Below, one piece after another: positions 7,202-43,621 of a stretch of 44,076 bases of DNA (its first letter is position 1; each line of letters begins with the position of its first letter). Under the pieces are notes generated by a model. It was not told the origin of the DNA and made no database searches. It worked only from the letters and a program-made list of their open reading frames with translations. This DNA is from a virus: the IMG/VR virus record IMGVR_UViG_3300046517_000256, positions 1 to 44,076 of that record; one strand, given 5' to 3'. The position numbers and the translations under genes were made by a program.

Positions 7202-7993
7202 TTATGCGGTGGAAGGACATTCCACCTGAGATGCGGGAGGGACACTCGCTGCCATCTCTGCGGGAGAAGATACGCCGTTGGGCTTTCGGCTGTCAACAGG
7301 TCTTTGCGCGTCATCAATTCCAAGGCCGTTGTAGATCATGTCAGCCATGGTCAGCAGGTTGACTTGGTGCATATGACCAACGCGGATGGCGCTGTTGCCG
7401 TAAATTTTGATTCCCTTTTCGCGTGCCATGTCGCAGAAGTAAATATCTTCGGTGCCAATCATCATGCCATGCTCGTTGTAGCGGTAGCGGAAGTACGGGT
7501 ACTCAACGGCGGCAAACGCTTCTTTACGAACGAACATGATCCCCGTACCTGACTTGGTTAGCGGATGGAAGCCTGGAGAGATGTCATAGTATTCTTTCTC
7601 GCCCACAACTTTATGGCCCTTGCTGCCCTGCTGTACTCCCCAACACAGAGTCACCGATGGCCTCGAGCCATCCCACATGTAATAGATCGGCGCCAGGATT
7701 CCCCAGTCGGGTGGTGCATCTTTCAGTGTGTCGATGATGTTTGGCGGCACCACCATGTCATTGTCGATCATCATCAGGATCTCAGCTTCAGAGTCCATGA
7801 AGTGCTTGCTGATGACGTTCCTGCCGGATGCGGCCGGAGAGAAGCAACTCATTGGAGCGTAGTTAGTCGAGTAGCGGTCTTCCCATCGCAGGCCATAAAG
7901 GAAGTCAGTGATTGATGGATGATGCCAACCGTCCCGTTCCGCGTGACTCAGTACGGTAATCAGCACCTTCGGAATCTTAGTTAACTCGCTCAT
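7202..7993 (-). CDS. Family 2-like glycosyltransferase (GT-A fold) beside the capsid gene
   Basis: This gene codes for 263 residues. The ATG at 7993 has GGAG 5 nt upstream and overlaps the previous gene by 17 nt. The N-terminal strand PKVLITVLSHAERDGW leads to LMMIDNDMVVPPNI, in which DND is the metal-binding DxD site of GT-A enzymes. GTEDIYFCDMAREKGIKI further on matches the acceptor/catalytic region of GT2-type proteins. The C-terminal 35 residues are Pro/Ser/Ala-rich and look disordered. A position between scaffold and capsid suggests that it glycosylates a virion protein, but sugar donor and acceptor are unknown. Confidence 0.8.
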   Translation of the reverse strand: MSELTKIPKVLITVLSHAERDGWHHPSITDFLYGLRWEDRYSTNYAPMSCFSPAASGRNVISKHFMDSEAEILMMIDNDMVVPPNIIDTLKDAPPDWGILAPIYYMWDGSRPSVTLCWGVQQGSKGHKVVGEKEYYDISPGFHPLTKSGTGIMFVRKEAFAAVEYPYFRYRYNEHGMMIGTEDIYFCDMAREKGIKIYGNSAIRVGHMHQVNLLTMADMIYNGLGIDDAQRPVDSRKPNGVSSPAEMAASVPPASQVECPSTA

Positions 7994-8417
7994 CAATTCT
8001 CCGGTATCCCAAGTCTCGCTTATTGGCCACAACATAGCCTTTCAGTTTGTAGGCGTTCTCATGTTCGGTGACGTAGGTGCCAGTCTCGTTGGGTAGCCAC
8101 TTGTCCACGACACCCTTGCGGCATACGGCTACCCCGCCACCGCGCGAGACGATCATGCCCAACTTTGGATACTTTTTCAGATACCTCTCTGCCTTGGTGA
8201 TGAAGCTGTCATCCGATGGAACGCAGCCAAAGTCGGCAAGGATGTAGTTTCCCTTTGCCATGTTCTCTGCCGAGATGCGGCGAATCAGTTGGTACTTGCT
8301 GGCCTTGTCCACCTTGAGGCCAACCACTTCGGCGCCATCCAAGGCATCCCACGCTTCCATGGTCTTGCCAAGAATGTCTACTGGCCACACTTCACTGAAA
8401 GAAATGAAGACTTCTAT
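7977..8417 (-). CDS. Hypothetical protein, possible glycosyltransferase-related; unusual ATA start
   Basis: This gene codes for 146 residues if started at ATA 8417, where ATAG overlaps the scaffold stop and GGAG lies 7 nt upstream. The only conventional start nearby is GTG at 8390, which has no visible SD and would remove a hydrophobic beta strand ([16 protein letters not shown]). The protein has alternating strands and helices, including NYILADFGCVPSDDSFI and GMIVSRGGGVAVCRKG, suggestive of a small Rossmann or GT-A-like fold. It is directly followed by a glycosyltransferase gene. The function is not established. Confidence 0.6.
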   Translation of the reverse strand: MEVFISFSEVWPVDILGKTMEAWDALDGAEVVGLKVDKASKYQLIRRISAENMAKGNYILADFGCVPSDDSFITKAERYLKKYPKLGMIVSRGGGVAVCRKGVVDKWLPNETGTYVTEHENAYKLKGYVVANKRDLGYRRIDERVN

Positions 8418-9121
8418 CGGAGTACTCCCTTTTCCCGCATTACTTTTTCGAGTTCATCCATTGGCATATTCATCAGTTTGGTTTCTTCCTCAACAGGCAG
8501 GCTGATGTCGCCATTGCCAGAGAGGGCAGGATTCGGTTCTTCCTGCTTCTGTTCTTGCTTGGGGGACAACGGCTTCACTTTGCCTTCTTCCTGCAACTCG
8601 CGGTAGGCCGACTCGATGGTGCGAATGTCCTGTGGATGTCCAGAATCAATCAGGCTGGCAAACTTCTCTGTCAGAACGCCGGCATACTTGGGATCAAAGT
8701 CATTTGAATGGCGTTGCAAGAACTGTGCCGAGAGCATCTGCTGCTTCATGTTGGAAACGTCATGGTTCATGTTCTTGAAGCTAGTCAGCAACTCATCCGA
8801 TGTCATGCCCATCTTGTAGGCCAAGGCGTCCACCACGGCGTCGGGAGGAGCATCGTTGAGGTTCTTGTAGAAGCGTTCCGAGTCATAGCGGTTTGGATTG
8901 GGCGGTGGCGCTGCCTGCCGGCGAAGCTGCGCGATCTCCTGCTGGAGTTGTTGCTGCTGCTGTGTATTCTGCTGCTGGTATTCCTGCATTTGGCGACGTG
9001 CTTCATTGAGTGCTGCCGAAGTATCGGTTTTCATCTTAATGGCAACATCTAAGGCTTGTTCCAAGTTTTCTGCTTTAATTACAGAGCCGTCTTCCAATTT
9101 CCTTTCAATCACTTCACCCAT
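8414..9121 (-). CDS. Probable capsid scaffolding protein
   Basis: This gene codes for 235 residues. The ATG at 9121 follows GGAGG by 5 nt; longer in-frame starts upstream lie inside the HNH gene. It is strongly helical with a Gln-rich coiled coil ([20 protein letters not shown]) followed by a helix-rich, charged C-terminus ([15 protein letters not shown]). The composition, length and place shortly before the capsid gene fit the scaffold proteins of podophages, which chaperone procapsid assembly and leave the head. No enzymatic motif is seen. The assignment rests on context and composition. Confidence 0.75.
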
Positions 9122-9557
9122 GTATTCCTCCAGTTTTCTTGTCATTCCAGCGCCTATTAGCATCCATCCTACAGGACTTACAATCCCTTCCCTCTCCGTT
9201 TGGTTTCCAGTAGGTATTTTCTTGAGTGTATTCATGTCCATATTTACAATGGGTGCGGGCCTTCCTAAGGCAACTGTCGTGGCGACCCTTTGCCACGCAA
9301 TCACGAACATTTTCTAGCGGTGTTCCCATGAAAAGATGCTTAGGATTAAAACACTTACGATTGTCGCAGGTATGACATACGTTTAATTTTGATACTAGGT
9401 CAAATCTCTTAAATACATGCGCTGAAACACGGTGAACATATTGCATTTTCTTGCCATACGTCATATTCCCATACCCGCGTTTCGTTATGGCCCCGGTCCA
9501 ATTCCAGCAGCCATTCTGGTCAATCCGCATGTTATTGGAGAAACATACCTCAGCCAT
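9114..9557 (-). CDS. HNH homing endonuclease (free-standing)
   Basis: This gene codes for 147 residues. The ATG at 9557 has GAGGAG 9 nt upstream. The motif order is [46 protein letters not shown], the H-N-H core of HNH_3-type phage endonucleases. A C-terminal zinc-ribbon follows ([16 protein letters not shown]). The gene overlaps the upstream gene by 8 nt and the scaffold start by 8 nt, so it was inserted without harming its neighbours. Its expected role is selfish homing into related phages. Confidence 0.88.
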
Positions 9558-26112: not shown

Positions 26113-26569
26113 GGATATACCTCGCAATCCACGACTCGGTTAGCATATCTTTCTTCCATGCGGGGTGATCGGGAAGGATTTCGGGGATATGCTCCATGTC
26201 ATCCACAAGAATGACTCCGTACAAACCGGATTTGAAGATGGTGGTGATTTCCTCCACGATGGGTCCGATCCATTCATCGCCATGCGAATCGAGCCAAAAC
26301 AGTACCGGGCCATTCACGGCGCGGCGTAGGACGCGCGGAAGTACCAATTCACCATCACCTAATAGGATTGTCACTTTGGATACCGTGCTGAATCTTTTTA
26401 CGGCGTCGTGGTAGTACTTGTCGGATTGCTCGATGGAGTAAAGTTTCTCGAAGGGATGATTTAGCATCGCGCCGATGGTGTCGCCCATGTAGGTGCCTGT
26501 TTCGATGAAGGTCTTGCAGCCGTACTTCTCGGCATGTTCGGTCAGGATGGCGCGTTTGGCGGCGCTCAT
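26102..26569 (-). CDS. Methyltransferase-like protein
   Basis: This gene codes for 155 residues. The ATG at 26569 forms an ATGA overlap with the fucosyltransferase stop; longer starts run into that gene. KTFIETGTYMGDTIGAM is a SAM-binding-like motif I, LYSIEQSDKYY is the following acidic strand, and GPVLFWLDSHGDEW and GVILVDDMEHI follow. The pattern is that of small phage and bacterial class I methyltransferases in polysaccharide clusters. Catalysis is plausible but not proven. Confidence 0.72.
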   Translation of the reverse strand: MSAAKRAILTEHAEKYGCKTFIETGTYMGDTIGAMLNHPFEKLYSIEQSDKYYHDAVKRFSTVSKVTILLGDGELVLPRVLRRAVNGPVLFWLDSHGDEWIGPIVEEITTIFKSGLYGVILVDDMEHIPEILPDHPAWKKDMLTESWIARYIHVE

Positions 26570-27330
26570 AATTTTATCCATCTCTCCGGGCAGATGTCCC
26601 TCGCATCGGCGTGGCCCACAAACCAACGCTTTGGGCAGATGATGGTGCGATTCTCGTGGACTTCTCCCAACCAACATCCCCACCACGAAAACGTACTGTT
26701 AGGTATGACGGCGTTTTTGCACAGACTCATCAGCCAGATATCCCACCAAGGTTGGGCAAGATTGCCTTCCACCACGGTTTCATCGGGGAAAGTTTGTTTG
26801 CACCATTCGGGATCGTCGGAAAAGATATAGAACTTCACGTCGGGATGCCTGTCTCTGACCATGCTCATGCCGACGGTGTGATACTCGAGCGGAAGTAGGC
26901 CATGGAAGGACAAAGCGCGAGGAGAGAGGTTATCGCCACGGCGGATGCCAACAAAGCATGGATTAGGACTGGAGGCGATTTCTGCTCCCATGGATAGAAC
27001 GTGATCGGGTATTGGGCCGCGCGGAGCTGCCATGGCTAACCTTACAGCATCCTCATCGAAATACTTCTCAGACTGCCAGTAGCCGACAAAGGAAGCCCCA
27101 ATAGGCGCATCCATGACGGTGGAGTTATAGCCATGGCCATGCTCCTGCACGATTGGTTCTGTGACATTACGAAATTCTAGGTCGGCGTAGGCATCGAGCA
27201 TGTAGGGGCGTTCGGGCGTGGCGCGATTGGTGTCTAAGTATAGAGGTTCGTTTCTGGATTCGGACATGGATAGGCCGAAGGCGTACTGAAAAAGTTGATT
27301 ACCAAGGCCACCTTGCAATGCAACGATCAT
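26566..27330 (-). CDS. GT11-family alpha-1,2-fucosyltransferase-like enzyme
   Basis: This gene codes for 254 residues. Family hallmarks are clear: N-terminal LQGGLGNQLFQYAFGLSMS, the donor-binding VGIRRGDN (HxRRxD-like), the SDDPEWCK region, and NSTFSWWGCWLGEV. GT11 enzymes transfer L-fucose from GDP-fucose, typically onto galactose. Fucose capping of lipopolysaccharide or of a virion glycan is possible. The start overlaps a short basic ORF by 4 nt, and the stop overlaps the methyltransferase-like gene. No GDP-fucose synthesis genes are in the window, so the donor must come from the host. Confidence 0.88.
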   Translation of the reverse strand: MIVALQGGLGNQLFQYAFGLSMSESRNEPLYLDTNRATPERPYMLDAYADLEFRNVTEPIVQEHGHGYNSTVMDAPIGASFVGYWQSEKYFDEDAVRLAMAAPRGPIPDHVLSMGAEIASSPNPCFVGIRRGDNLSPRALSFHGLLPLEYHTVGMSMVRDRHPDVKFYIFSDDPEWCKQTFPDETVVEGNLAQPWWDIWLMSLCKNAVIPNSTFSWWGCWLGEVHENRTIICPKRWFVGHADARDICPERWIKL

Positions 27331-27452
27331 AGACCCGCTAACCTCATCAATCCCGTGAGGATCAATGCTTGTTTCTTCTTTGGCATCTTCTTTATAACTT
27401 TCGATATTCCCTTGTACTTCTTATAAGCCTTGAGCTTTTTTGTGCGCGGCAT
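27327..27452 (-). CDS. Small lysine-rich protein (41 aa) overlapping the galactosyltransferase end
   Basis: The ATG at 27452 has GGAG 7 nt upstream. The product MPRTKKLKAYKKYKGISKVI then MPKKKQALILTGLMRLAGL is strongly basic with a hydrophobic end. It overlaps the upstream gene by 32 nt in another frame, and its TGA overlaps the fucosyltransferase ATG. Coupling and the SD support translation. It may be a leader or a small nucleic-acid-binding protein; function unknown. Confidence 0.5.
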   Translation of the reverse strand: MPRTKKLKAYKKYKGISKVIKKMPKKKQALILTGLMRLAGL

Positions 27453-28014
27453 ACATTAACTCCGTTTTAAATGGCTGCAATGTGGACAGATGATGGCTGA
27501 TCACATCGTTATCGGGAAGGACGGGGATAAAGGGAGAGTAGCGAATGTCGTGGTGCAGGGTGACGCCGCAACAACGCAAGATCTCGCCTACCATGACATC
27601 CTCGCAATCCTCATAGCCACGCACACCTTCGGTGAAATTCGACCAGTTGGCATCGGCCAGGAAGTTGATGGCCTTGTTTGAGAGCCAGTAATGGGGACCA
27701 GAGGCATAGGGATGGCCTTCGATCTGGTTCAGCTCAAAGCCGGAATAGTCGTATTGCTCGAATCCTGACTTGAGCAGCCTGTCGATGGATACATAGGTGT
27801 CGGTATCCACTTTGAACAGGAAGTCCCACCTGCGAGCAAAATTGCAGATGGCCTTGGTCTTGGCTGGTAGGGACTTGTAATCGTCGGGAATATGTAGCAT
27901 GGGGCCATCGAAGTAGGCCACTACTACATCACTAGTATATGCCCAAGTATCCTGTTGAGATTTCCAACGGTCATGGTGGTCTTCGCATCCCTCGACGGCA
28001 ATCATAATCTTCAC
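27421..28014 (-). CDS. GT31-like (galactosyltransferase-type) glycosyltransferase
   Basis: This gene codes for 197 residues. FLFKVDTDTYVSIDRLL contains the DxD metal site in the context typical of beta-1,3-galactosyl/GlcNAc transferases of family GT31. ASGPHYWLSNKAINFL and GYEDCEDVMVGEIL match the downstream acceptor and catalytic ED(V)xxG signature. GT31 is mostly eukaryotic, with related bacterial and viral members. The ATG at 28014 overlaps the dehydrogenase stop. The sugar specificity cannot be fixed by sequence reading. Confidence 0.75.
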   Translation of the reverse strand: MKIMIAVEGCEDHHDRWKSQQDTWAYTSDVVVAYFDGPMLHIPDDYKSLPAKTKAICNFARRWDFLFKVDTDTYVSIDRLLKSGFEQYDYSGFELNQIEGHPYASGPHYWLSNKAINFLADANWSNFTEGVRGYEDCEDVMVGEILRCCGVTLHHDIRYSPFIPVLPDNDVISHHLSTLQPFKTELMYAAHKKAQGL

Positions 28015-28781
28015 TTCATGGCCTCATTGATCTTGTCAGCGGCGATGGATAAGTGCGCTTCGACACCGACGGACTTGGCGAAATAGGCAAACATGGCGTT
28101 ATCGCGGGGGAGGCAGGGGCCGCCATAGGGTTCACCTGGTTTTAGGTACTGTGGACCGATGCGCGGGTCGGCGCCCACGACTTGCATGATTTTATCGGCG
28201 TCGGCGCCCATGCGCTTGGCCACCAGATACAACTGGTTGGCGAGGGAGATTTTCATGGTCAAGGCGCAGTTCAGGGTGATTTTGGCTAGTTCAGCCTCTA
28301 CAAGCCCCATGCGGAATACCGGAGCGTTGGTAAGGCGTTTGTAGAGTTCCTCGCAGCGGGTGCCGGCGGAGTAAGTGCCTTCGCCAATCAGAACGTAGGG
28401 CTGAGAGCGCAGATCCTCTTCGATACGAGCGAGGCGGATAAACTCGGGCTTGTAGCAAAGCGTGTTGCCGACGATTTCCATGAACCGCTCGCAGGACCCG
28501 GGGACGACGGTAGATCCGATGATGTAGAGATAGCCGGGTGGGGCGAAGGCTTTGAAGGCGCGAAGAGCGTTTTCCAGGTATTGATTGGAGAAACTGCCAT
28601 CTGGTAGCGATGGGGTATGCACCATGAAGATGCAGGCATCGGAGGATTTTACGGTTTGCTCAAGCGAGCATTGGGACTTACTACTACAAATGTCGTAGCC
28701 AGGGGCTTCTATGCCTTTGGAGCGCAGAAACTCGAGCAGTGGCAGACCCACCTTGCCTAGACCACAGACGGCTACCCTCAT
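28011..28781 (-). CDS. UDP-glucose/GDP-mannose dehydrogenase family protein, short form
   Basis: This gene codes for 256 residues. The ATG at 28781 is in an ATGA overlap. MRVAVCGLGKVGLPLLEFLR is the NAD-binding GxGxxG strand. IIGSTVVPGS, KPEFIRLARIEEDL, AELAKITLNCALTMKISLAN (catalytic Lys and Asn) and YGGPCLPRDN (catalytic Cys) are all present. The family oxidises nucleotide sugars to uronic acids. Usual members have about 400-450 residues; this one ends shortly after the central domain and lacks the C-terminal UDP-binding domain. Activity is therefore plausible but not assured. Confidence 0.82.
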   Translation of the reverse strand: MRVAVCGLGKVGLPLLEFLRSKGIEAPGYDICSSKSQCSLEQTVKSSDACIFMVHTPSLPDGSFSNQYLENALRAFKAFAPPGYLYIIGSTVVPGSCERFMEIVGNTLCYKPEFIRLARIEEDLRSQPYVLIGEGTYSAGTRCEELYKRLTNAPVFRMGLVEAELAKITLNCALTMKISLANQLYLVAKRMGADADKIMQVVGADPRIGPQYLKPGEPYGGPCLPRDNAMFAYFAKSVGVEAHLSIAADKINEAMK

Positions 28782-29452
28782 GCCTTGACCGCGCGGATGA
28801 GAAGATGATGGCCAAGGTAAGGCTCGAGTGCTTCCTTGGGAATCCAGGTCCATGGCCAATCTATGACATAGCGGCCTTGGATGTAGTCCTTGATCCGGTA
28901 GGGGAAGATGTGGGTCTTTTCGATGGAGACCACCCTAAAACCTGCCGATTCGACCAATTTACGTGCTTGGCGCTTACTGTACCACTTTACCAGTGGGCAG
29001 CCGGACTGAGCTTCGGGTTGCGTGCCAAGGAAGTGTTTTAGGGAATATTTCCCGTAAAGCATGATTCTTAGCTCGCCACCTTGCGCCAGAACCATATAGG
29101 AGGTATGAAGAACGACTTCTGGATTGGGCGTGTGGTGGAGGACGCCGAAGGAATAGACCAGATCGAAACTACAGAACGATGGAATGGCCGAGAAGTAAGC
29201 GATATTGGGGTGATCGTTTATTTTGGTGGCCATGGCAAGGCTGGCATTGGATGTATCCACAGCCACAACTCTGGCACCTCCGATGGCAAAATGGAAAGCG
29301 TCTTCACCGATGCCGCAACCGATTTCCAACACCTGTTTGCCACGCCATTTGAAGAAATCGGCAAAAGGTGGGATGTGGGGCTGAACCTTATAACGGTTGC
29401 CGGAAGGGCGGAGAGAGCCGCAGGGTTGGCGATCCCAGTATTCCTCAAACAT
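28778..29452 (-). CDS. SAM-dependent methyltransferase (class I)
   Basis: This gene codes for 224 residues from the ATG at 29452, two bases after the previous stop. QVLEIGCGIGEDAFHFAIGG is motif I. VVAVDTSNASLAMA (motif II), SFDLVYSFGVLHHTPNPEVV (motif IV) and LAQGGELRIMLYG follow. The C-terminal part, YSKRQARKLVESAGFRVVSI, is typical of Methyltransf_11-type enzymes. The context of sugar enzymes suggests O- or N-methylation of a glycan. Confidence 0.83.
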   Translation of the reverse strand: MFEEYWDRQPCGSLRPSGNRYKVQPHIPPFADFFKWRGKQVLEIGCGIGEDAFHFAIGGARVVAVDTSNASLAMATKINDHPNIAYFSAIPSFCSFDLVYSFGVLHHTPNPEVVLHTSYMVLAQGGELRIMLYGKYSLKHFLGTQPEAQSGCPLVKWYSKRQARKLVESAGFRVVSIEKTHIFPYRIKDYIQGRYVIDWPWTWIPKEALEPYLGHHLLIRAVKA

Positions 29453-29454
29453 GG

Positions 29455-30012
29455 CTAGTAGCCCCAGTGAAGATTGGGATTGGAGCTGAAACCATGCCCC
29501 ATGTGCATATGGCGCAGTGGAGGATTGCCCCACAAAAGTCCTTGTTTCTTGCCCATGGCGAGGACCATGGCGTGCATTTCTCCGCATTCATTGTTCATGG
29601 TGATCTCGGGAAGTTTGGCGCAGGCGCCTTTACGAACGAGCATAGGCTGACCAACAGCGTGCATGGGGTAGATTTCCACGTCATCGGATGGTGGTTTTGC
29701 CATATTCTCGCCTTCGATGACGGAAAGGGTAGAAGCCATCAGGTAGTCGGGATTACGCAGCATGATGGCACAGGCTCGGGGAACCCAATCTTTGCCTAGT
29801 AGGAGGATGTCATCGTCACAGAAGATGTAAGGATCGGACTGTGCTGCCATGTCGGCCATCTCGCGGATCTCGCGCAGTGAGCCTTGGCGTGTATCGAGCA
29901 CCGTGATCCTATCCTCGGATGTCAATGCAAGGTGGAAACGTGCCATGGTGGCAAGGAAAAGCATCTCCCTTAGCCCTTCCGATGGCGCATGGCGTATGAA
30001 TACATCCGTCAT
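29455..30012 (-). CDS. GT-A-type glycosyltransferase
   Basis: This gene codes for 185 residues. The N-terminal FHLALTSEDRITVLDTRQGS leads to QSDPYIFCDDDILLLGKDWV, a classic DxD region. Downstream, HAVGQPMLVRKGACAKLPEI and CGEMHAMVLAMGKKQGLLWG fit the acceptor side of small GT2/GT-A enzymes. The ATG at 30012 overlaps the regulator stop. It is the first catalytic gene of the modification cluster. Confidence 0.75.
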   Translation of the reverse strand: MTDVFIRHAPSEGLREMLFLATMARFHLALTSEDRITVLDTRQGSLREIREMADMAAQSDPYIFCDDDILLLGKDWVPRACAIMLRNPDYLMASTLSVIEGENMAKPPSDDVEIYPMHAVGQPMLVRKGACAKLPEITMNNECGEMHAMVLAMGKKQGLLWGNPPLRHMHMGHGFSSNPNLHWGY

Positions 30013-33452: not shown

Positions 33453-33638
33453 GTGAGCGACTACAAAGACGCCATGCAAAAGATTGCCGACGAAATGGCA
33501 CAGGAGACATACGAAAAAGACTTTTACGATCTGCCGCAGCATTTGCAAATGGAAGTCTACAACGAGGCAATGGCCGAATACGTCAATCGCCTATGTGACC
33601 AAGCCGACCAAATGCTAGACGCATCGAGGGAACAATGA
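33453..33638 (+). CDS. Small acidic helical protein upstream of ERF
   Basis: This gene codes for 61 residues from a GTG at 33453 with GGAGG 8 nt upstream. A longer ATG frame at 33414 starts upstream of the promoter -10 and is rejected. MSDYKDAMQKIADEMAQETY and YNEAMAEYVNRLCDQADQM are helical and acidic. It overlaps the ERF start by 4 nt. Function unknown. Confidence 0.7.
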   Translation: MSDYKDAMQKIADEMAQETYEKDFYDLPQHLQMEVYNEAMAEYVNRLCDQADQMLDASREQ

Positions 33639-34681
33639 CAGACGAGGCAAAGCCGAAGGGATTGATCATCAAGTTATGCGAAGTGATGGCCGAAGTTGGC
33701 TACGTCGCCAAGCGTGGAGAGAACGAAAAACACCACTACAAATATGCCACTGAAGCCGACCTGGTTGACGCCATCCGCGATAAACTCGCCACACGAAATA
33801 TCTTCCTTTTTCCCGACGTGGTTTCCACTGATCGGGCATTGCTCTATACGACACAGAGCGGTTCTGGCATGTACATCACCGATGTAATGGTCAAGTGGAC
33901 CTTCATTGACGGCGATACCGGAGAAACACGCGAATGCCATATGCCGGGATGCGGCACCGACATGCAGGACAAGGGAGTCTATAAGGCCATTACGGGAAGT
34001 GAGAAGTATGTACTGAAGAATGCTTTCCTCATCCCGACTGGTGATGATCCCGAAAAGGAAGAACGGGGCAGCAAGGAAGCAGCTTCGGAAGTCGCGCAAG
34101 CCAAGATCGGGGCCGCCAAGAAAGTCAAAGTATCCTTCTCGCCCGATGACACCATGTTTGTCTATGGCCCTGGCTGCATCTTCGTTGACACTGTGCTCAA
34201 GTCATCAGCCACCAAGAATGTATTGGGCCAGTGGATTGTGAACAAGAAAGATGGCCCAGAAGTTCTCAAGGCTCTCGGTGAAGCAGGCGTAGAAGTCACT
34301 GAGGAGCCATACACAGTTCCCCCGTCTGGGGGCAATCCAGCAGCGCCAAAGGCTCCGCCGTCTTCCCCTAAGGCGGCGGAGAGTTCTCCAGGTGTAATGA
34401 AGGGCTACTTGCTGGACATCAAGCAGCTAAAAACAAAGAAGGGGCAACAGTACCTTGCTGCAACGATTGATGGCGTAACTGGATCGGTGTTTGACAATCC
34501 GATGGTGGACTTGGCCGACGGTTCGCAGTTGAAGCTATTTAGTCTGCTACTGGAATCGAAGGGATTGGCCGTCACCGCATACATTCAGCACGCGGGGCAG
34601 TACACCAATTTCACTGGGTTCTCCCGCATTGGCAAACATCAGTGGGAAGACAATATGCCTGTGAGAAGCCTCAATGACTAG
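33635..34681 (+). CDS. erf: ERF-family single-strand annealing protein
   Basis: This gene codes for 348 residues. The N-terminal domain shows the ERF pattern: CEVMAEVGYVAKRGENEKHH, YKYATEADLVDAIRDKLATR, and the conserved AITGSEKYVLKNAFLIPTGD. A Pro/Ala/Ser-rich linker (about 235-265) joins a C-terminal OB-like domain (GYLLDIKQLKTKKGQQYLAA, then FTGFSRIGKHQW). ERF proteins anneal single strands in phage recombination and circularisation. It probably cooperates with the RusA resolvase. The start is in an ATGA overlap. Confidence 0.87.
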   Translation: MTDEAKPKGLIIKLCEVMAEVGYVAKRGENEKHHYKYATEADLVDAIRDKLATRNIFLFPDVVSTDRALLYTTQSGSGMYITDVMVKWTFIDGDTGETRECHMPGCGTDMQDKGVYKAITGSEKYVLKNAFLIPTGDDPEKEERGSKEAASEVAQAKIGAAKKVKVSFSPDDTMFVYGPGCIFVDTVLKSSATKNVLGQWIVNKKDGPEVLKALGEAGVEVTEEPYTVPPSGGNPAAPKAPPSSPKAAESSPGVMKGYLLDIKQLKTKKGQQYLAATIDGVTGSVFDNPMVDLADGSQLKLFSLLLESKGLAVTAYIQHAGQYTNFTGFSRIGKHQWEDNMPVRSLND

Positions 34682-36679: not shown

Positions 36680-36843
36680 AACTGAAAAACAAGGCATGTC
36701 TGATGTTGATGGGCGCCAACCTACTGGTAACGAACTATGTGGACCCCGATGGCGAGTCTGAGCCTAAGCAGATTGTCTGTGAGATGGCCAACCTTCGGGT
36801 GACGATAAAGGAAAACTCCGTTCTGGTGGAGGCATTGCCATGA
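36676..36843 (+). CDS. Small hypothetical protein (55 aa)
   Basis: A GGAGG lies 6 nt before the ATG, and both ends overlap neighbours by 4 nt. MKLKNKACLMLMGANLLVTN then CEMANLRVTIKENSVLVEAL is beta-rich. No family recognised. Confidence 0.68.
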   Translation: MKLKNKACLMLMGANLLVTNYVDPDGESEPKQIVCEMANLRVTIKENSVLVEALP

Positions 36844-36854
36844 GGAGGGTGCAA

Positions 36855-37055
36855 ATGAATCTAAACGAATACTTTAACTTACCGGATACGCCGATGCGTA
36901 ATTCCCCTGTTGGCAAGCTAATGGTTAGGATCCTAGAGGAATTCCCCGACTTGGATCTGGAATTTGCTCGTACGGCGTCCAGAATCGCACTAAATGGCAC
37001 TGGGGGAGGGAATAGAATTGACGAAGCGTTGCAGAAACTGAGGAGACGGCTATGA
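36855..37055 (+). CDS. Small hypothetical protein (66 aa)
   Basis: The ATG at 36855 has GGAGG 6 nt upstream; an earlier in-frame ATG at 36840 is coupled to the previous stop. MNLNEYFNLPDTPMRNSPVG then MVRILEEFPDLDLEFARTAS is helical. It ends in an ATGA overlap with the PEP-CTERM gene. Function unknown. Confidence 0.66.
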   Translation: MNLNEYFNLPDTPMRNSPVGKLMVRILEEFPDLDLEFARTASRIALNGTGGGNRIDEALQKLRRRL

Positions 37056-37561
37056 AATACGCCTTAGCGGTTGCTTTACTGTTCTGTTCGGCAGGCTTGG
37101 CCAAGGCTGACACCATCAACCACGTCGAACTATCAGGCGCCTGGGGCAATCAAGCCACCTTCCAGACAAGTTTTAACTGGGATGTGACCACCGAGAGCCT
37201 TGTAGCCGATACCATGGTCACACAGGACACAGGCATAGGCGCTCTTACACTGGCATCCATCAGCCCTACCCGTGCGACATGGCTAGGCGATCTTGGCTAC
37301 CTCCAGTTCTACCCGCATGACCATGGCATCTTTGCGGCATTCGATACGGTGGGTGAGTGGACGACAGGGGCGTTGTTTGAACTGTGGAAGTACAACGGAG
37401 CGTTCTACTTTCCAAATGGCAGCGCCACGGCGAGCACGGGAAGTTTGACCGTGACCGATCCACCGGATACGCCTGTCAATACGCCTGAACCTGCCGAAAT
37501 CGCAATGATTTGCGTTGGTCTCCTGGGATTGGCGGCTTGGAGGAAACGTTGCGCGTCTTAG
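37052..37561 (+). CDS. Secreted PEP-CTERM sorting-domain protein
   Basis: This gene codes for 169 residues. MKYALAVALLFCSAGLAKAD is a Sec signal peptide with an AKA cleavage site. The mature part is beta-rich (NHVELSGAWGNQATFQTSFN, LQFYPHDHGIFAAFDTVGEW) and ends with NTPEPAEIAMICVGLLGLAA followed by WRKR. The Pro-Glu-Pro, a hydrophobic stretch and a basic end are the three parts of the PEP-CTERM signal, which exosortase cleaves in host bacteria. It lies inside a coupled early operon and overlaps the methyltransferase start, so it is phage-expressed. An exosortase is not in the window. Confidence 0.82.
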   Translation: MKYALAVALLFCSAGLAKADTINHVELSGAWGNQATFQTSFNWDVTTESLVADTMVTQDTGIGALTLASISPTRATWLGDLGYLQFYPHDHGIFAAFDTVGEWTTGALFELWKYNGAFYFPNGSATASTGSLTVTDPPDTPVNTPEPAEIAMICVGLLGLAAWRKRCAS

Positions 37562-38085
37562 ACCTATTCTGTGGCGCTGGTGGTGCAGCTATGGGCTTAC
37601 ACCGCGCATGGCCTGACGCGGAGATTATTGGCGTGGACATAAATCTGCAGCCGCATTACCCGTTCATGTTCGTGCAGGCCGATGCGATGACTTATCCTAT
37701 CGGTTGTGAATGCTTTATTGGCGGCTCGATCGATGCTTACCCAGAATGCTGCGATAGTTGCGGCCTAGATTATAAGTTTCATTTTGATTTCATTTGGGCT
37801 AGTCCTCCCTGTCAAGGCTATACGCTCATGCGTCATATGGGTAAGCGAGCCGGTGAGGGAGCACCGAAACTAATTGAACCAATTCGTCTACGATTAAAAT
37901 CCAGTCAAATTCCCTTTGTGATTGAAAATGTAGTCGGCGCTCCACTCGTAAATCCCATTACCATTTGTGGCTCCGACTCGGCCCCTTGTATGAAGTGCGG
38001 AGCCAAGGTCTGCCCTACCTACCGAGGGCCGTACTCTAGGGAATGGGCCAAACATTTTCAGCCCAAGGATGGCGAGGAGAAATGA
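37549..38085 (+). CDS. C5-cytosine DNA methyltransferase-like protein, short
   Basis: This gene codes for 178 residues from a TTG at 37549, with GGAGG 5 nt upstream. VLDLFCGAGGAAMGLH is motif I, FIWASPPCQGYT is motif IV with the catalytic Cys, and FVIENVVGAP is motif VI. A Cys-rich insert (CECF...CCDSCG) precedes motif IV. After ITICG the usual QRRxRxF motif VIII, target-recognition domain and motifs IX-X are missing and are replaced by CMKCGAKVC. Usual members exceed 300 residues. It may be a reduced, partnered or inactive enzyme that modifies phage or host DNA. Confidence 0.78.
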   Translation: MRVLDLFCGAGGAAMGLHRAWPDAEIIGVDINLQPHYPFMFVQADAMTYPIGCECFIGGSIDAYPECCDSCGLDYKFHFDFIWASPPCQGYTLMRHMGKRAGEGAPKLIEPIRLRLKSSQIPFVIENVVGAPLVNPITICGSDSAPCMKCGAKVCPTYRGPYSREWAKHFQPKDGEEK

Positions 38086-38615
38086 CTGAACCATCCGAGG
38101 TAGCTGCGGCGAAGGAACGCTTACGCCAACATATTGCCTGGGTAGAACAAACTGGTTCTTTTGACCCATATACATCCGACCATGGACCACCTAATAATCT
38201 AATTCAGTGCGACAAAGAAATTCCTACGAGCATCGAACCTGTCTCGTGTGGCCGCTATAAAGGGCATCCCGGTGAGTGTGAGGTTTGGGGATGGGTTACT
38301 CCTGCGCCACCGAAGTCCACTTATTCCCAGTCTGACCTTGACCACGAACTTGCCTTGCGCGAAGCGGTGTGGCGGGAGGCGGCGATTGCTGCTTTGAAAT
38401 CAGCGGAACCGAGTATCCCTATGCTTCGATGGCTCAATCGCGCCTGCGAAATACTTGCCGCTCTCCCCTCCTCCACCGAACTATTGGCGCAGCGCGAGAA
38501 GGCGCTCAAAGAATCCATTGGGGGTGTCACTTATAGCCCACCTGTTCCTCCAAGAAGCACAGATGTGGCGGCCCCCAGTGGGTATAGTGAAAAGATTCAA
38601 AGAGATGAGGACTAA
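38082..38615 (+). CDS. Hypothetical protein, last early gene
   Basis: This gene codes for 177 residues from the ATG at 38082, in an ATGA overlap with the methyltransferase and with GGAG upstream. The N-terminus is helical (AAAKERLRQHIAWVEQTGSF). A Cys-Gly segment (SCGRYKGHPGECEVWGW) looks like a small metal or structural motif. Helical sequence and a Pro/Ser tail follow. It converges with the lysis gene 10 nt away; no terminator hairpin is visible between them. Confidence 0.7.
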   Translation: MTEPSEVAAAKERLRQHIAWVEQTGSFDPYTSDHGPPNNLIQCDKEIPTSIEPVSCGRYKGHPGECEVWGWVTPAPPKSTYSQSDLDHELALREAVWREAAIAALKSAEPSIPMLRWLNRACEILAALPSSTELLAQREKALKESIGGVTYSPPVPPRSTDVAAPSGYSEKIQRDED

Positions 38616-40629: not shown

Positions 40630-41087
40630 TGTCGTATGCTCGTTTCCAGCACGCAACCCTTGCTTATCTTCCAGTAAGCGTCGGTGCCATTCATCAACGG
40701 ACCAGAGACTATTACGAAAGTAGAACCATTGGCAATGGTTGAAATTGGCACCCCGGCCAAGTTCGTGCAGGACTTCACTGGAACGATGGCTAACGCCTTC
40801 ATGGTGTCGCCAGCTTTGAACTTGGGCAGGTCGGCTGGCAGGGTGATGCCGATGGCATTCGATGGCGCACTGTCAGCAGCCGGCGGTGTTGCTACAGCGG
40901 TCACCGAGTACACGTAAGCTACCCCACCCTGTACGGTGGTATCGCGGTAGGTGGTGGCAGTGGCCGGCAGCGTGGCAACCACGGCTCCGTTGCGCTGCAC
41001 CTTAAGAGAAGCCATATCAGGATCTGGCGTGGTGGTGAAGGTAAGCGATATGGCGTGCTGCGCCAGAAGCAAGAAGATCCAGTTCAT
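40626..41087 (-). CDS. Secreted-looking fibronectin III-type protein
   Basis: This gene codes for 153 residues from the ATG at 41087, in an ATGA overlap; the longer ORF to 41195 overlaps the previous gene and is rejected. MNWIFLLLAQHAISLTFTT is a short Sec-like signal. MASLKVQRNGAVVATLPATA, then VAYVYSVTAVATPPAADSAP is one fibronectin III-like domain. The C-terminal part (KSCTNLAGVPISTIANGSTF, then VIVSGPLMNGTDAYWKISKG) resembles an SH3-like module. It may bind carbohydrate or cell wall. Confidence 0.7.
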   Translation of the reverse strand: MNWIFLLLAQHAISLTFTTTPDPDMASLKVQRNGAVVATLPATATTYRDTTVQGGVAYVYSVTAVATPPAADSAPSNAIGITLPADLPKFKAGDTMKALAIVPVKSCTNLAGVPISTIANGSTFVIVSGPLMNGTDAYWKISKGCVLETSIRQ

Positions 41088-43621
41088 TGCCCGCTCCCAA
41101 CGATGATGACAGGAGATTTCAAAGTGTGCGTCACGGGGTTCTGTATACCCACCGCACAGACCACGTGATAGCCAACCTCGCTTACTAAGTTCCATGTGTC
41201 CAGAGGCTCAGCGCCGGTGCGGAAGGTATAGCCACTGGCGATCTGTGTCTCCGCCCCACCTGGAGCGGTCACGTAGCCATCATAGGTTCCCGCCGCGGCG
41301 TTTATGACCAGCCGGAAATTATATATAACGCCGCCCAAGTAGGGGAATGAGTTTGCGGCTTGATAAGCCATGGCAGCCTGATTATAGGCATCCACCACCC
41401 CTGCCGCGCTGAATCGCATGATTACGGCTAAGTTCGCATAGGAAGAAGCCGCGCCCATGCTGAACCCGGTGACGCCATCCATGGCGTTCTGGCTTGGCTG
41501 GCCTGAGAACGTCGTAGTAAAGGTTCCACTTTGTGAGGCAATCGAGAAGCCGCTGAACGATGCGCTGGCCTGCTGACACCCTGGTCCTACCCCACCACCG
41601 TAGTTAGCGGTAATGGTGGTATCAGTGGCGATGGCTGAGAATGTACAAACTGCTCCCGCTACGGACGGGCAATTCGTCCAACTCTGGAATGTGTTAAGAC
41701 CAACCGTGGATGGCGCAGTGCAGACCACCGTGCTTCCTACCGTGTAGTTGTGCATGAACGGAGTTACGTCGGTATCCGCTGTGCATACAATAGTCACGCC
41801 ACTTGCCGGGTTGGAACTATGAACTGTAAGCACCACAGGTGGAGTAACGGAATAGTTAGCCGTGTAGGTCGCGCTGGCATGGACGGCAGCATTGGAACAG
41901 TTGTTACCCGATGGCGTGCATCCACCCGTCCACGAACCTACCGTAGCCGCTGCGCCAATTGTCACGTTCGTGCCATCGTTGTAGACAAACGATGTGGGGC
42001 TATTTCCCGCTGTTTTCCCATTAACGTCTGATGTGCCTGTAATCGCCACGCCCGTGGAGGGGTTGGTGGTTTGAATCGTAAGTGTCCATGGCCCCGCCAC
42101 CGCAGTACGGTTAGCGGCACCCGCATCCCATGCCGTTGTGCCTCCGGGCCTGGCGACTCCATGCCTGTCAGAGTTAAGCGGTGTTATTCCCAAGCTGGTT
42201 AGATTAGCTGCTACTCCTATCACGGCAGATCCCATGTTTGGATCGCCACCCGCTGCAAGGCCAGCACTCATCGGAGCGGCGGAGGGAGAGGCATCTCCAC
42301 CAACACAAGCCTGCCAGTTGGCGAACTGAGAGAAGTTATAGAAGTTACTGTTGCAAACGAATGCGTTTGAACCACCGTTGGCATAGATATTGTTGGCAAA
42401 CACCGATCCAGAACCCAAGACAACGAGAGCCAACTGATTGCAGGTGGTCATCACATTGTTCTTAAACACCAAACCCGTAAGAGTTGTATTCGATCCAAAA
42501 CAAAGACCATCACTGGTTGTGGAACCAATCATAGTGTTATTGAGGATTTTATTCCCCGTGCCGCTGTAGATGCCAAACAGACCGTTGTTGATGGGCGCAT
42601 CGGATATGCCAGTATTGTTGTAGAAGTTTTGCCCCGTGATGCCTGCCTCTGATCCGCCTGCTTCCTCAAAGACAAATGCTGTTAAGCAAGAGCCTGTATT
42701 GCCGCTGGTAAGGGTAGAACAGACAGCATTGCCCCAAGCTCCATCGAAAAGATTGTTGTAAACCTGCAAACCACTGATGGCGGTATGGGAAGGCACACCA
42801 TAGAAATGAAATCCCGTCAGGTGGTAGCAGGCGCTGTTTGCCCCGCAACCTACCGTAACCGTACTCCAGTTGCCGAAGTCAAAGATGTGGTTGTCATGGA
42901 TACTGACGTTAGACAATGCTCCCCCAGGTGCGCTGCTGGTTCCACCTAGGACGATTCCATGAGGCATCCGGGAGATGGAATTGTTGTATATTTGTAGGTT
43001 CGTTGACGGGGCGCTGAATTGCAGGTTGATGCACCAAGGGCCATCGCTGAAAGTATCGTCATGGATCAGGATGTTATTGCCCACGCCATTCGCATAGATG
43101 CAGCCTGTTACAGTCACATCGGGAGTTGAATCGGTCGTAGAAGTATGGTCATACAGGTGCGTCATGGTCACATGGTCAATTTCGTAATCACTGGCCCCGG
43201 AGGCTTGGATGCCCATCGAATTAAGCTGATTGGCTAGTCCGCTGCCATTGGCCGTGGCCGTGATCGTTAGGGCCGTTACCCGCAGGAAAGACTTGCCTCC
43301 AAGGTTGATGGCTCCATTGGCATTCCATGCTGGCGAGGTAAGCGTCCCACCGCCCGATGCGCCACGCAGAGTGATGACATTCCCACTCGTTCCTGATTGA
43401 CCAAAGCCAAATGCGAAGCCATTGGCGGCTACCGTTACCGTGCCGCATAGGACAACAACATCTCCCGCCGCGAGGGTCTGCGAGTTGATGCTGGCCGTGT
43501 TTACAGCGGTGTGCGTGCCACCGTCACAGGTAAGCGAACCTGCCGTCTGTGCCCAGTAAAAGGTCGTGGCATGGGCACTCGAGGCACACAGCATTGCCGC
43601 AAGAAGAAGAAGTTTTCTCAT
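41084..43621 (-). CDS. Large secreted right-handed beta-helix protein (tailspike/depolymerase-like)
   Basis: This gene codes for 845 residues. MRKLLLLAAMLCASSAHAT is a strong Sec signal peptide. Residues of about 50-450 show the right-handed parallel beta-helix pattern of pectate-lyase-like proteins (ILIHDDTFSDGPWCINLQ, LQIYNNSISRMPHGIVLGG, ISGLQVYNNLFDGAWGN, with NN ladders). Two Ig-like repeats with WxxCxxxxG turns follow, then a C-terminal lectin-like domain. It may be a tailspike that degrades host polysaccharide, or a secreted enzyme. Its start overlaps the preceding tail-fibre stop (ATGA). Confidence 0.78.
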   Translation of the reverse strand: MRKLLLLAAMLCASSAHATTFYWAQTAGSLTCDGGTHTAVNTASINSQTLAAGDVVVLCGTVTVAANGFAFGFGQSGTSGNVITLRGASGGGTLTSPAWNANGAINLGGKSFLRVTALTITATANGSGLANQLNSMGIQASGASDYEIDHVTMTHLYDHTSTTDSTPDVTVTGCIYANGVGNNILIHDDTFSDGPWCINLQFSAPSTNLQIYNNSISRMPHGIVLGGTSSAPGGALSNVSIHDNHIFDFGNWSTVTVGCGANSACYHLTGFHFYGVPSHTAISGLQVYNNLFDGAWGNAVCSTLTSGNTGSCLTAFVFEEAGGSEAGITGQNFYNNTGISDAPINNGLFGIYSGTGNKILNNTMIGSTTSDGLCFGSNTTLTGLVFKNNVMTTCNQLALVVLGSGSVFANNIYANGGSNAFVCNSNFYNFSQFANWQACVGGDASPSAAPMSAGLAAGGDPNMGSAVIGVAANLTSLGITPLNSDRHGVARPGGTTAWDAGAANRTAVAGPWTLTIQTTNPSTGVAITGTSDVNGKTAGNSPTSFVYNDGTNVTIGAAATVGSWTGGCTPSGNNCSNAAVHASATYTANYSVTPPVVLTVHSSNPASGVTIVCTADTDVTPFMHNYTVGSTVVCTAPSTVGLNTFQSWTNCPSVAGAVCTFSAIATDTTITANYGGGVGPGCQQASASFSGFSIASQSGTFTTTFSGQPSQNAMDGVTGFSMGAASSYANLAVIMRFSAAGVVDAYNQAAMAYQAANSFPYLGGVIYNFRLVINAAAGTYDGYVTAPGGAETQIASGYTFRTGAEPLDTWNLVSEVGYHVVCAVGIQNPVTHTLKSPVIIVGSGQ

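What the first reader, a model, noticed from the sequence alone, without database searches (positions are those of the whole stretch)
37052..37561. Phage-encoded PEP-CTERM protein in an early operon
A signal peptide plus TPEPAEIAMICVGLLGLA and a basic tail is a textbook PEP-CTERM design, normally confined to bacterial exopolysaccharide-producing hosts. It is coupled on both sides to phage genes. It could modify the host surface, block superinfection or use the host exosortase.
Basis: partly seen in the sequence, partly recalled or inferred. Interest (0 to 1): 0.75.

Follow-up and report, generated by a model that had tools for sequence, protein, structure and literature searches.

The report
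Phage gene borrowing host export tag
A soil virus of bacteria carries, in its early gene block, a gene for an exported protein with the bacterial 'PEP-CTERM' address tag for the cell surface; unrelated viral contigs carry similarly tagged proteins without the enzyme that reads the tag, which suggests that phages use their host's surface-sorting machinery, something I found no report of.

Summary
ORF 37052-37561 (169 aa) has a Sec signal peptide, a 124-aa mature domain with almost no K/R and no Cys, then TPEP, a hydrophobic helix and RKR. It passes TIGR02595 narrowly (16.5 vs 16 bits). PF07589 scores 21.3 (cut-off 20.7) in the six-frame search but 18.0 in the whole-protein scan, so it is genuine but not 'textbook'. 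Upstream it overlaps a phage gene by ATGA; downstream, its RKR codons overlap the ribosome-binding site of a phage methyltransferase.

The only homologue (two metagenomes) lies in a phage with an unrelated virion module. The mature domain is under purifying selection (dN/dS about 0.09). TPEPxEI changed only silently except at x, while signal peptide and TM residues diverged. Closer virion relatives lack the gene, so it is a mobile accessory cassette. Nearest isolate relatives of both phages infect Tunturiibacter (Acidobacteriota).

A motif scan of IMG/VR hit its 119-stretch limit. Of 50 records tested, 48 pass PF07589, 22 carry a phrog_2 terminase, none an exosortase. Cargoes fall into about 43 families. 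I found no paper on phage PEP-CTERM proteins.

Best reading: a host-exosortase-dependent envelope or surface protein, probably for superinfection exclusion or receptor masking. Function and host exosortase are untested.

The parts
37052..37561 (+). phage-encoded PEP-CTERM-type exported protein, 169 aa
   Evidence: Shine-Dalgarno-like GAGGAG at 37040-37045; homologue in L002/L003
37052..37108 (+). Sec signal peptide, residues 1-19 (AKA|D cleavage site)
   Evidence: sequence; architecture kept in the homologue (AHA|D) despite many changes; SignalP could not be run
37109..37480 (+). mature cargo domain, residues 20-143, orphan, predicted beta-rich (low confidence)
   Evidence: K+R 2 of 124, no Cys; dN 0.057, dS 0.641; no family match; model pLDDT 46
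37481..37492 (+). TPEP motif
   Evidence: TPEPxEI: 1 identical codon, 5 synonymous, 1 non-synonymous against the homologue
37493..37540 (+). hydrophobic C-terminal helix
   Evidence: hydropathy, helix in the model with the highest pLDDT of the model
37541..37549 (+). basic tail RKR; the same bases carry the Shine-Dalgarno of the next gene
   Evidence: GGCTTGGAGGAAACGTTG
36840..37055 (+). upstream small phage ORF, ATGA-coupled to the PEP gene
37549..38085 (+). downstream DNA methyltransferase, TTG start inside the PEP gene
   Evidence: phrog_363 E 9.5e-21
38082..38615 (+). last gene of the early block; also near the PEP homologue in G001 (43% identity)
   Evidence: ATGA overlap
33635..34681 (+). 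Erf-like single-strand annealing protein of the same operon
   Evidence: phrog_155 E 1.1e-27

Best explanation
The gene is an accessory ('moron') cassette of a tailed phage, most likely infecting Acidobacteriota. Shown by sequence: signal peptide, orphan mature domain, PEP-CTERM tripartite tail, location and translational coupling in a block of recombination and replication-type genes, purifying selection on the mature domain and on the PEP motif, gain or loss between phage lineages, and no exosortase in the phage. Inferred: the protein is made early, exported by Sec, held in the inner membrane by its C-terminal helix, recognised at PEP by the host's exosortase, and delivered to the outer surface or exopolysaccharide. 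There it changes the surface of the infected cell, most plausibly masking or altering receptors (superinfection exclusion), less likely altering matrix adhesion.
For: PEP-CTERM models and pattern with no shuffle match. K/R- and Cys-poor mature part, as Haft et al. 2006 report for PEP-CTERM proteins (PMC1569441). TPEPxEI kept through silent changes while signal peptide and TM/tail residues diverged. Homologue in two other metagenomes, in a phage with an unrelated virion module, while three relatives with 59-62% terminase identity lack it. No exosortase in these records or in 50 PEP-CTERM-bearing viral records, 48 of them over the PF07589 cut-off. Other PEP-CTERM genes in phage context: terminase-PEP-portal (L026), DNA polymerase-PEP-helicase (L010), next to a major head protein (L023). 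Host hint: the window portal's only match among 50,697 phage records is Tunturi_3, and the best matches of the homologue phage's terminase are Tunturi_1 and 2.
Against: Model scores are borderline (one search is under the Pfam cut-off) and the homologue lacks the Arg cluster and misses TIGR02595. No host exosortase was demonstrated. The mature domain has no known relative or confident fold, so the surface function is an inference. Some PEP-CTERM genes in other phages lie in structural regions, so early timing is not general. Neither Tunturi_1 nor Tunturi_3 shows a PEP-CTERM protein (in which no control genome rang either; ORF scans also found none).
Confidence: 0.48

Rival explanations
1. [quoted passage not shown] the PEP motif is incidental or only a membrane-proximal spacer.
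For: Borderline scores; the homologue has KLK and a longer tail, so the basic cluster may reflect the overlapping Shine-Dalgarno. Signal peptide plus one C-terminal TM is enough for inner-membrane tethering.
Against: TPEPxEI is the conserved part of an otherwise diverged C-terminus. The same tag recurs on about 43 unrelated cargo families in viral contigs, which argues for recognition of the tag.
Confidence: 0.22
2. Decoy or competitor of the host exosortase: a short, abundant substrate that saturates sorting and weakens exopolysaccharide-linked surface proteins.
For: Same anatomy; the phage carries a substrate but no enzyme.
Against: The mature domain is under strong purifying selection (dN/dS about 0.09), which a mere competitor would not need; other phage-borne tagged ORFs are mostly about 90-290 aa long with distinct cargo domains.
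Confidence: 0.1
3. Lysis protein resembling a unimolecular spanin (signal sequence, beta-rich periplasmic domain, C-terminal TM).
For: u-spanins have a C-terminal TM, no periplasmic Cys and, in the prototype T1 gp11, a mostly beta periplasmic domain (PMC6139136); the gene lies near the junction with the late genes.
Against: u-spanins are lipoproteins; the homologue has no Cys in its signal peptide and the window's LLFC does not fit the lipobox consensus. It is in the early-strand operon, not with the lysis genes.
Confidence: 0.08
4. Chance resemblance, chimeric contig or host contamination.
For: Scores near cut-off.
Against: Overlapping phage genes on both sides, an independent homologue in two other assemblies, inside a phage operon, no shuffle match, purifying selection.
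Confidence: 0.04

Closest known systems
PEP-CTERM/exosortase (EpsH) system, Haft et al. 2006 (PMC1569441)
   Same: signal peptide, PEP motif, TM helix, basic tail; K/R- and Cys-poor cargo without relatives
   Different: encoded by a phage, one copy, no exosortase alongside; borderline model score
Bacterial PEP-CTERM cargo families such as FxDxF (NF038126), NF038129, THxN (NF038125)
   Same: C-terminal tag; weak whole-length alignment to NF038126 (E 0.005)
   Different: far below each curated cut-off; the mature domain alone matches none
Phage morons acting on the host envelope (superinfection exclusion proteins)
   Same: accessory, independently transferred, small exported protein in a phage genome
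   Different: those known to me do not use a C-terminal sorting tag; function here is unproven
LPXTG surface proteins carried by prophages of Gram-positive bacteria (from general knowledge)
   Same: phage gene product that would use a host sorting enzyme
   Different: different tag, enzyme family and cell envelope
Unimolecular spanins such as T1 gp11 (PMC6139136)
   Same: N-terminal signal, beta-rich periplasmic part, C-terminal TM
   Different: no conserved lipobox, PEP motif before the TM, not in the lysis cassette

Membership tests
PEP-CTERM protein (TIGR02595/PF07589) | score above a curated cut-off for the C-terminal domain | tested here: met
   TIGR02595 16.5 vs 16; PF07589 21.3 vs 20.7 in six frames; but 18.0 in hmmscan: borderline
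PEP-CTERM protein (TIGR02595/PF07589) | near-invariant PEP, TM helix and basic cluster at the C-terminus | tested here: met
   TPEP-helix-RKR-CAS end; the homologue keeps TPEP and helix but has KLK
PEP-CTERM protein (TIGR02595/PF07589) | N-terminal signal peptide | tested here: met
   by eye and hydropathy; SignalP not available
PEP-CTERM protein (TIGR02595/PF07589) | cargo poor in basic residues and Cys | tested here: met
   K+R 1.6%, Cys 0 in residues 20-143; reported trait in PMC1569441
PEP-CTERM protein (TIGR02595/PF07589) | exosortase (EpsH family) in the same cell | not testable with these tools
   none in the phage records; host genome not identified; scans for host relatives empty
PEP-CTERM protein (TIGR02595/PF07589) | exosortase-dependent processing | not testable with these tools
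   needs experiment
unimolecular spanin | N-terminal lipobox Cys | tested here: not met
   homologue signal peptide has no Cys; window LLFC is off consensus
phage moron | present or absent independently of the phage core genes | tested here: met
   absent from close virion relatives, present in a phage with an unrelated virion module
superinfection exclusion protein | blocks infection by a second phage | not testable with these tools
   needs experiment

The most novel reading that the evidence does not exclude
Phages of exosortase-bearing bacteria have repeatedly and independently put the PEP-CTERM tag on unrelated cargo proteins, so that the host's own exosortase displays phage-made proteins on the cell surface: a widespread, undescribed class of phage surface-conversion proteins in Gram-negative hosts.
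Probability: 0.4. Interest if true: 0.8.

Novelty: new variant of a known kind. Interest (0 to 1): 0.62.

Why it matters
Exosortases and their cargo shape biofilm matrix, flocs and cell surfaces of many environmental bacteria, and the function of most cargo is unknown. If phages supply cargo and rely on the host's exosortase, infected cells would wear phage-made surface proteins; superinfection exclusion and matrix change in soil bacteria become testable, and the exosortase becomes a possible host factor for phages. For virome annotation, PEP-CTERM genes on viral contigs should not be discarded as host contamination.

Tried and rejected
Host search: genome-contig scans with the PEP alignment and with the terminase alignment were both empty. 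Terriglobia genomes could not be opened through the genome search, and the Granulicella megaplasmid shows no PEP-CTERM (where no control genome rang either). Isolate phages and plasmids: no relative of the window protein nor, in phages, of two other phage PEP cargoes. A consensus-tag tblastn is uninformative because the low-complexity filter may mask it. Mature-domain family search empty. Structure of the window protein too poor to use (pLDDT 46). The largest phage PEP family (A3) folds with fair confidence as a beta-rich domain (pLDDT 78), but Foldseek found no match (E 0.15 or worse) and the VIA second look gave only middling Z (8.1 at best, barrel-like folds), so no function was inferred. 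Clustering of PEP genes near the terminase in other phages: 6 of 16 contigs of 25 kb or more within 4 kb against about 3 expected, not convincing. FxDxF family membership rejected (17 bits against a cut-off of 50). No excess of promoter-like or terminator-like sites around the operon.

Full report
OBSERVATION. The ORF at 37052-37561 exists as described: MKYALAVALLFCSAGLAKA|DTINH...TPEPAEIAMICVGLLGLAAWRKRCAS, 169 aa. It has a Shine-Dalgarno (GAGGAG, 37040-37045) and starts in an ATGA overlap with the preceding ORF. The next gene, a DNA methyltransferase (phrog_363), appears to start at a TTG (37549) inside its last codons; the bases encoding the RKR tail are also that gene's Shine-Dalgarno. Profile evidence is positive but near threshold: TIGR02595 16.5 bits (cut-off 16); PF07589 21.3 (cut-off 20.7) in the six-frame search with no control genome over the cut-off, but 18.0 in the whole-protein scan. 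A degenerate tag pattern hits the window once, never in 100 shuffles. The mature part has 2 K/R in 124 residues and no Cys, the composition Haft et al. 2006 report for PEP-CTERM cargo (PMC1569441).

EVOLUTION. The only homologue found lies in viral contigs of two other metagenomes (L002/L003, 16,449 of 16,450 bases identical to each other). It is 87% identical over residues 1-150. Codon comparison: mature domain dN 0.057, dS 0.641; TPEPxEI has five synonymous and one non-synonymous changes; signal peptide and TM/tail carry many replacements but keep their character. The PEP motif is therefore probably selected, not incidental. The homologue has KLK rather than an Arg cluster and fails TIGR02595, so the basic tail may be partly dictated by the overlapping Shine-Dalgarno.

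MOBILITY. Phages sharing the window's terminase (59-62%), portal (57-60%) and head protein (71-72%), namely G003, G005 and G006, lack the gene. The homologue phage G001 shares none of that virion module, but shares the PEP gene, a signal-peptide-bearing repeat-rich protein (41084-43621, 68%), a structural-region protein (46%) and the last early gene (43%). The gene is thus an accessory cassette exchanged between phages that probably share hosts.

HOST. The window portal's only match in 50,697 phage records is Tunturi_3, a phage of Tunturiibacter (Acidobacteriota, Terriglobia); terminase, head protein and tail genes also match it weakly. The G001 terminase best matches Tunturi_1 and 2, with about twelve genes shared. 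An acidobacterial host is likely but inferred from 20-38% identity. That Terriglobia carry exosortases could not be tested.

WIDER PATTERN. A tag-pattern scan of IMG/VR stopped at its limit with 119 stretches; 96 of 123 motif instances sit near the C-terminus of an ORF with a signal-peptide-like start. Of 50 records tested, 48 score over the PF07589 cut-off, 22 hold a phrog_2 terminase and none an exosortase. The records were chosen by the motif, so 48 of 50 confirms the tag and is not a prevalence. In L026 the PEP gene lies between terminase and portal, with four-base overlaps to its neighbours; in L010 between DNA polymerase and helicase; in L023 next to a major head protein. The 96 cargoes form about 43 sequence clusters; the largest has no PHROG. 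Some contigs may include host flanks. No paper on phage PEP-CTERM proteins was found in the open-access library.

MECHANISM. Most likely: early expression, Sec export, host exosortase recognition at PEP, display at the surface or in exopolysaccharide, altering receptors for later phages. Export, tag and selection are supported by sequence; processing, location and effect are inference. [quoted passage not shown]

VERDICT. Interest 0.62.

Noticed in passing
window 41084-43621 (-): 845-aa repeat-rich protein in the late region with a clear Sec signal peptide (MRKLLLLAAMLCASSAHA|TT); 68% identical to G001 7755-9317. Signal-peptide-like starts recur on large proteins of G001, G003, G005, G006 and of Tunturi_1, including its annotated tail spike: odd for virion proteins.
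   Followed up: partly
window 26566-29587 (-): Sugar-gene cluster in the late region: family 11 glycosyltransferase, galactosyltransferase-like, UDP-glucose/GDP-mannose dehydrogenase, methyltransferase; possibly virion or surface glycosylation.
   Followed up: no
IMG/VR records behind L006-L124: PEP-CTERM genes are frequent on viral contigs, about 43 cargo clusters, no exosortase in 50 records.
   Followed up: partly
L031 3216-3419 (-): Small membrane protein that looks holin-like by eye follows a phage PEP-CTERM gene with a 4-base overlap; a lysis-module link in that lineage is possible.
   Followed up: no
window 38505-38611: 107 bases 97% identical to L002 10991-11097 although most surrounding sequence is unrelated: recent exchange between the two phages.
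   Followed up: no
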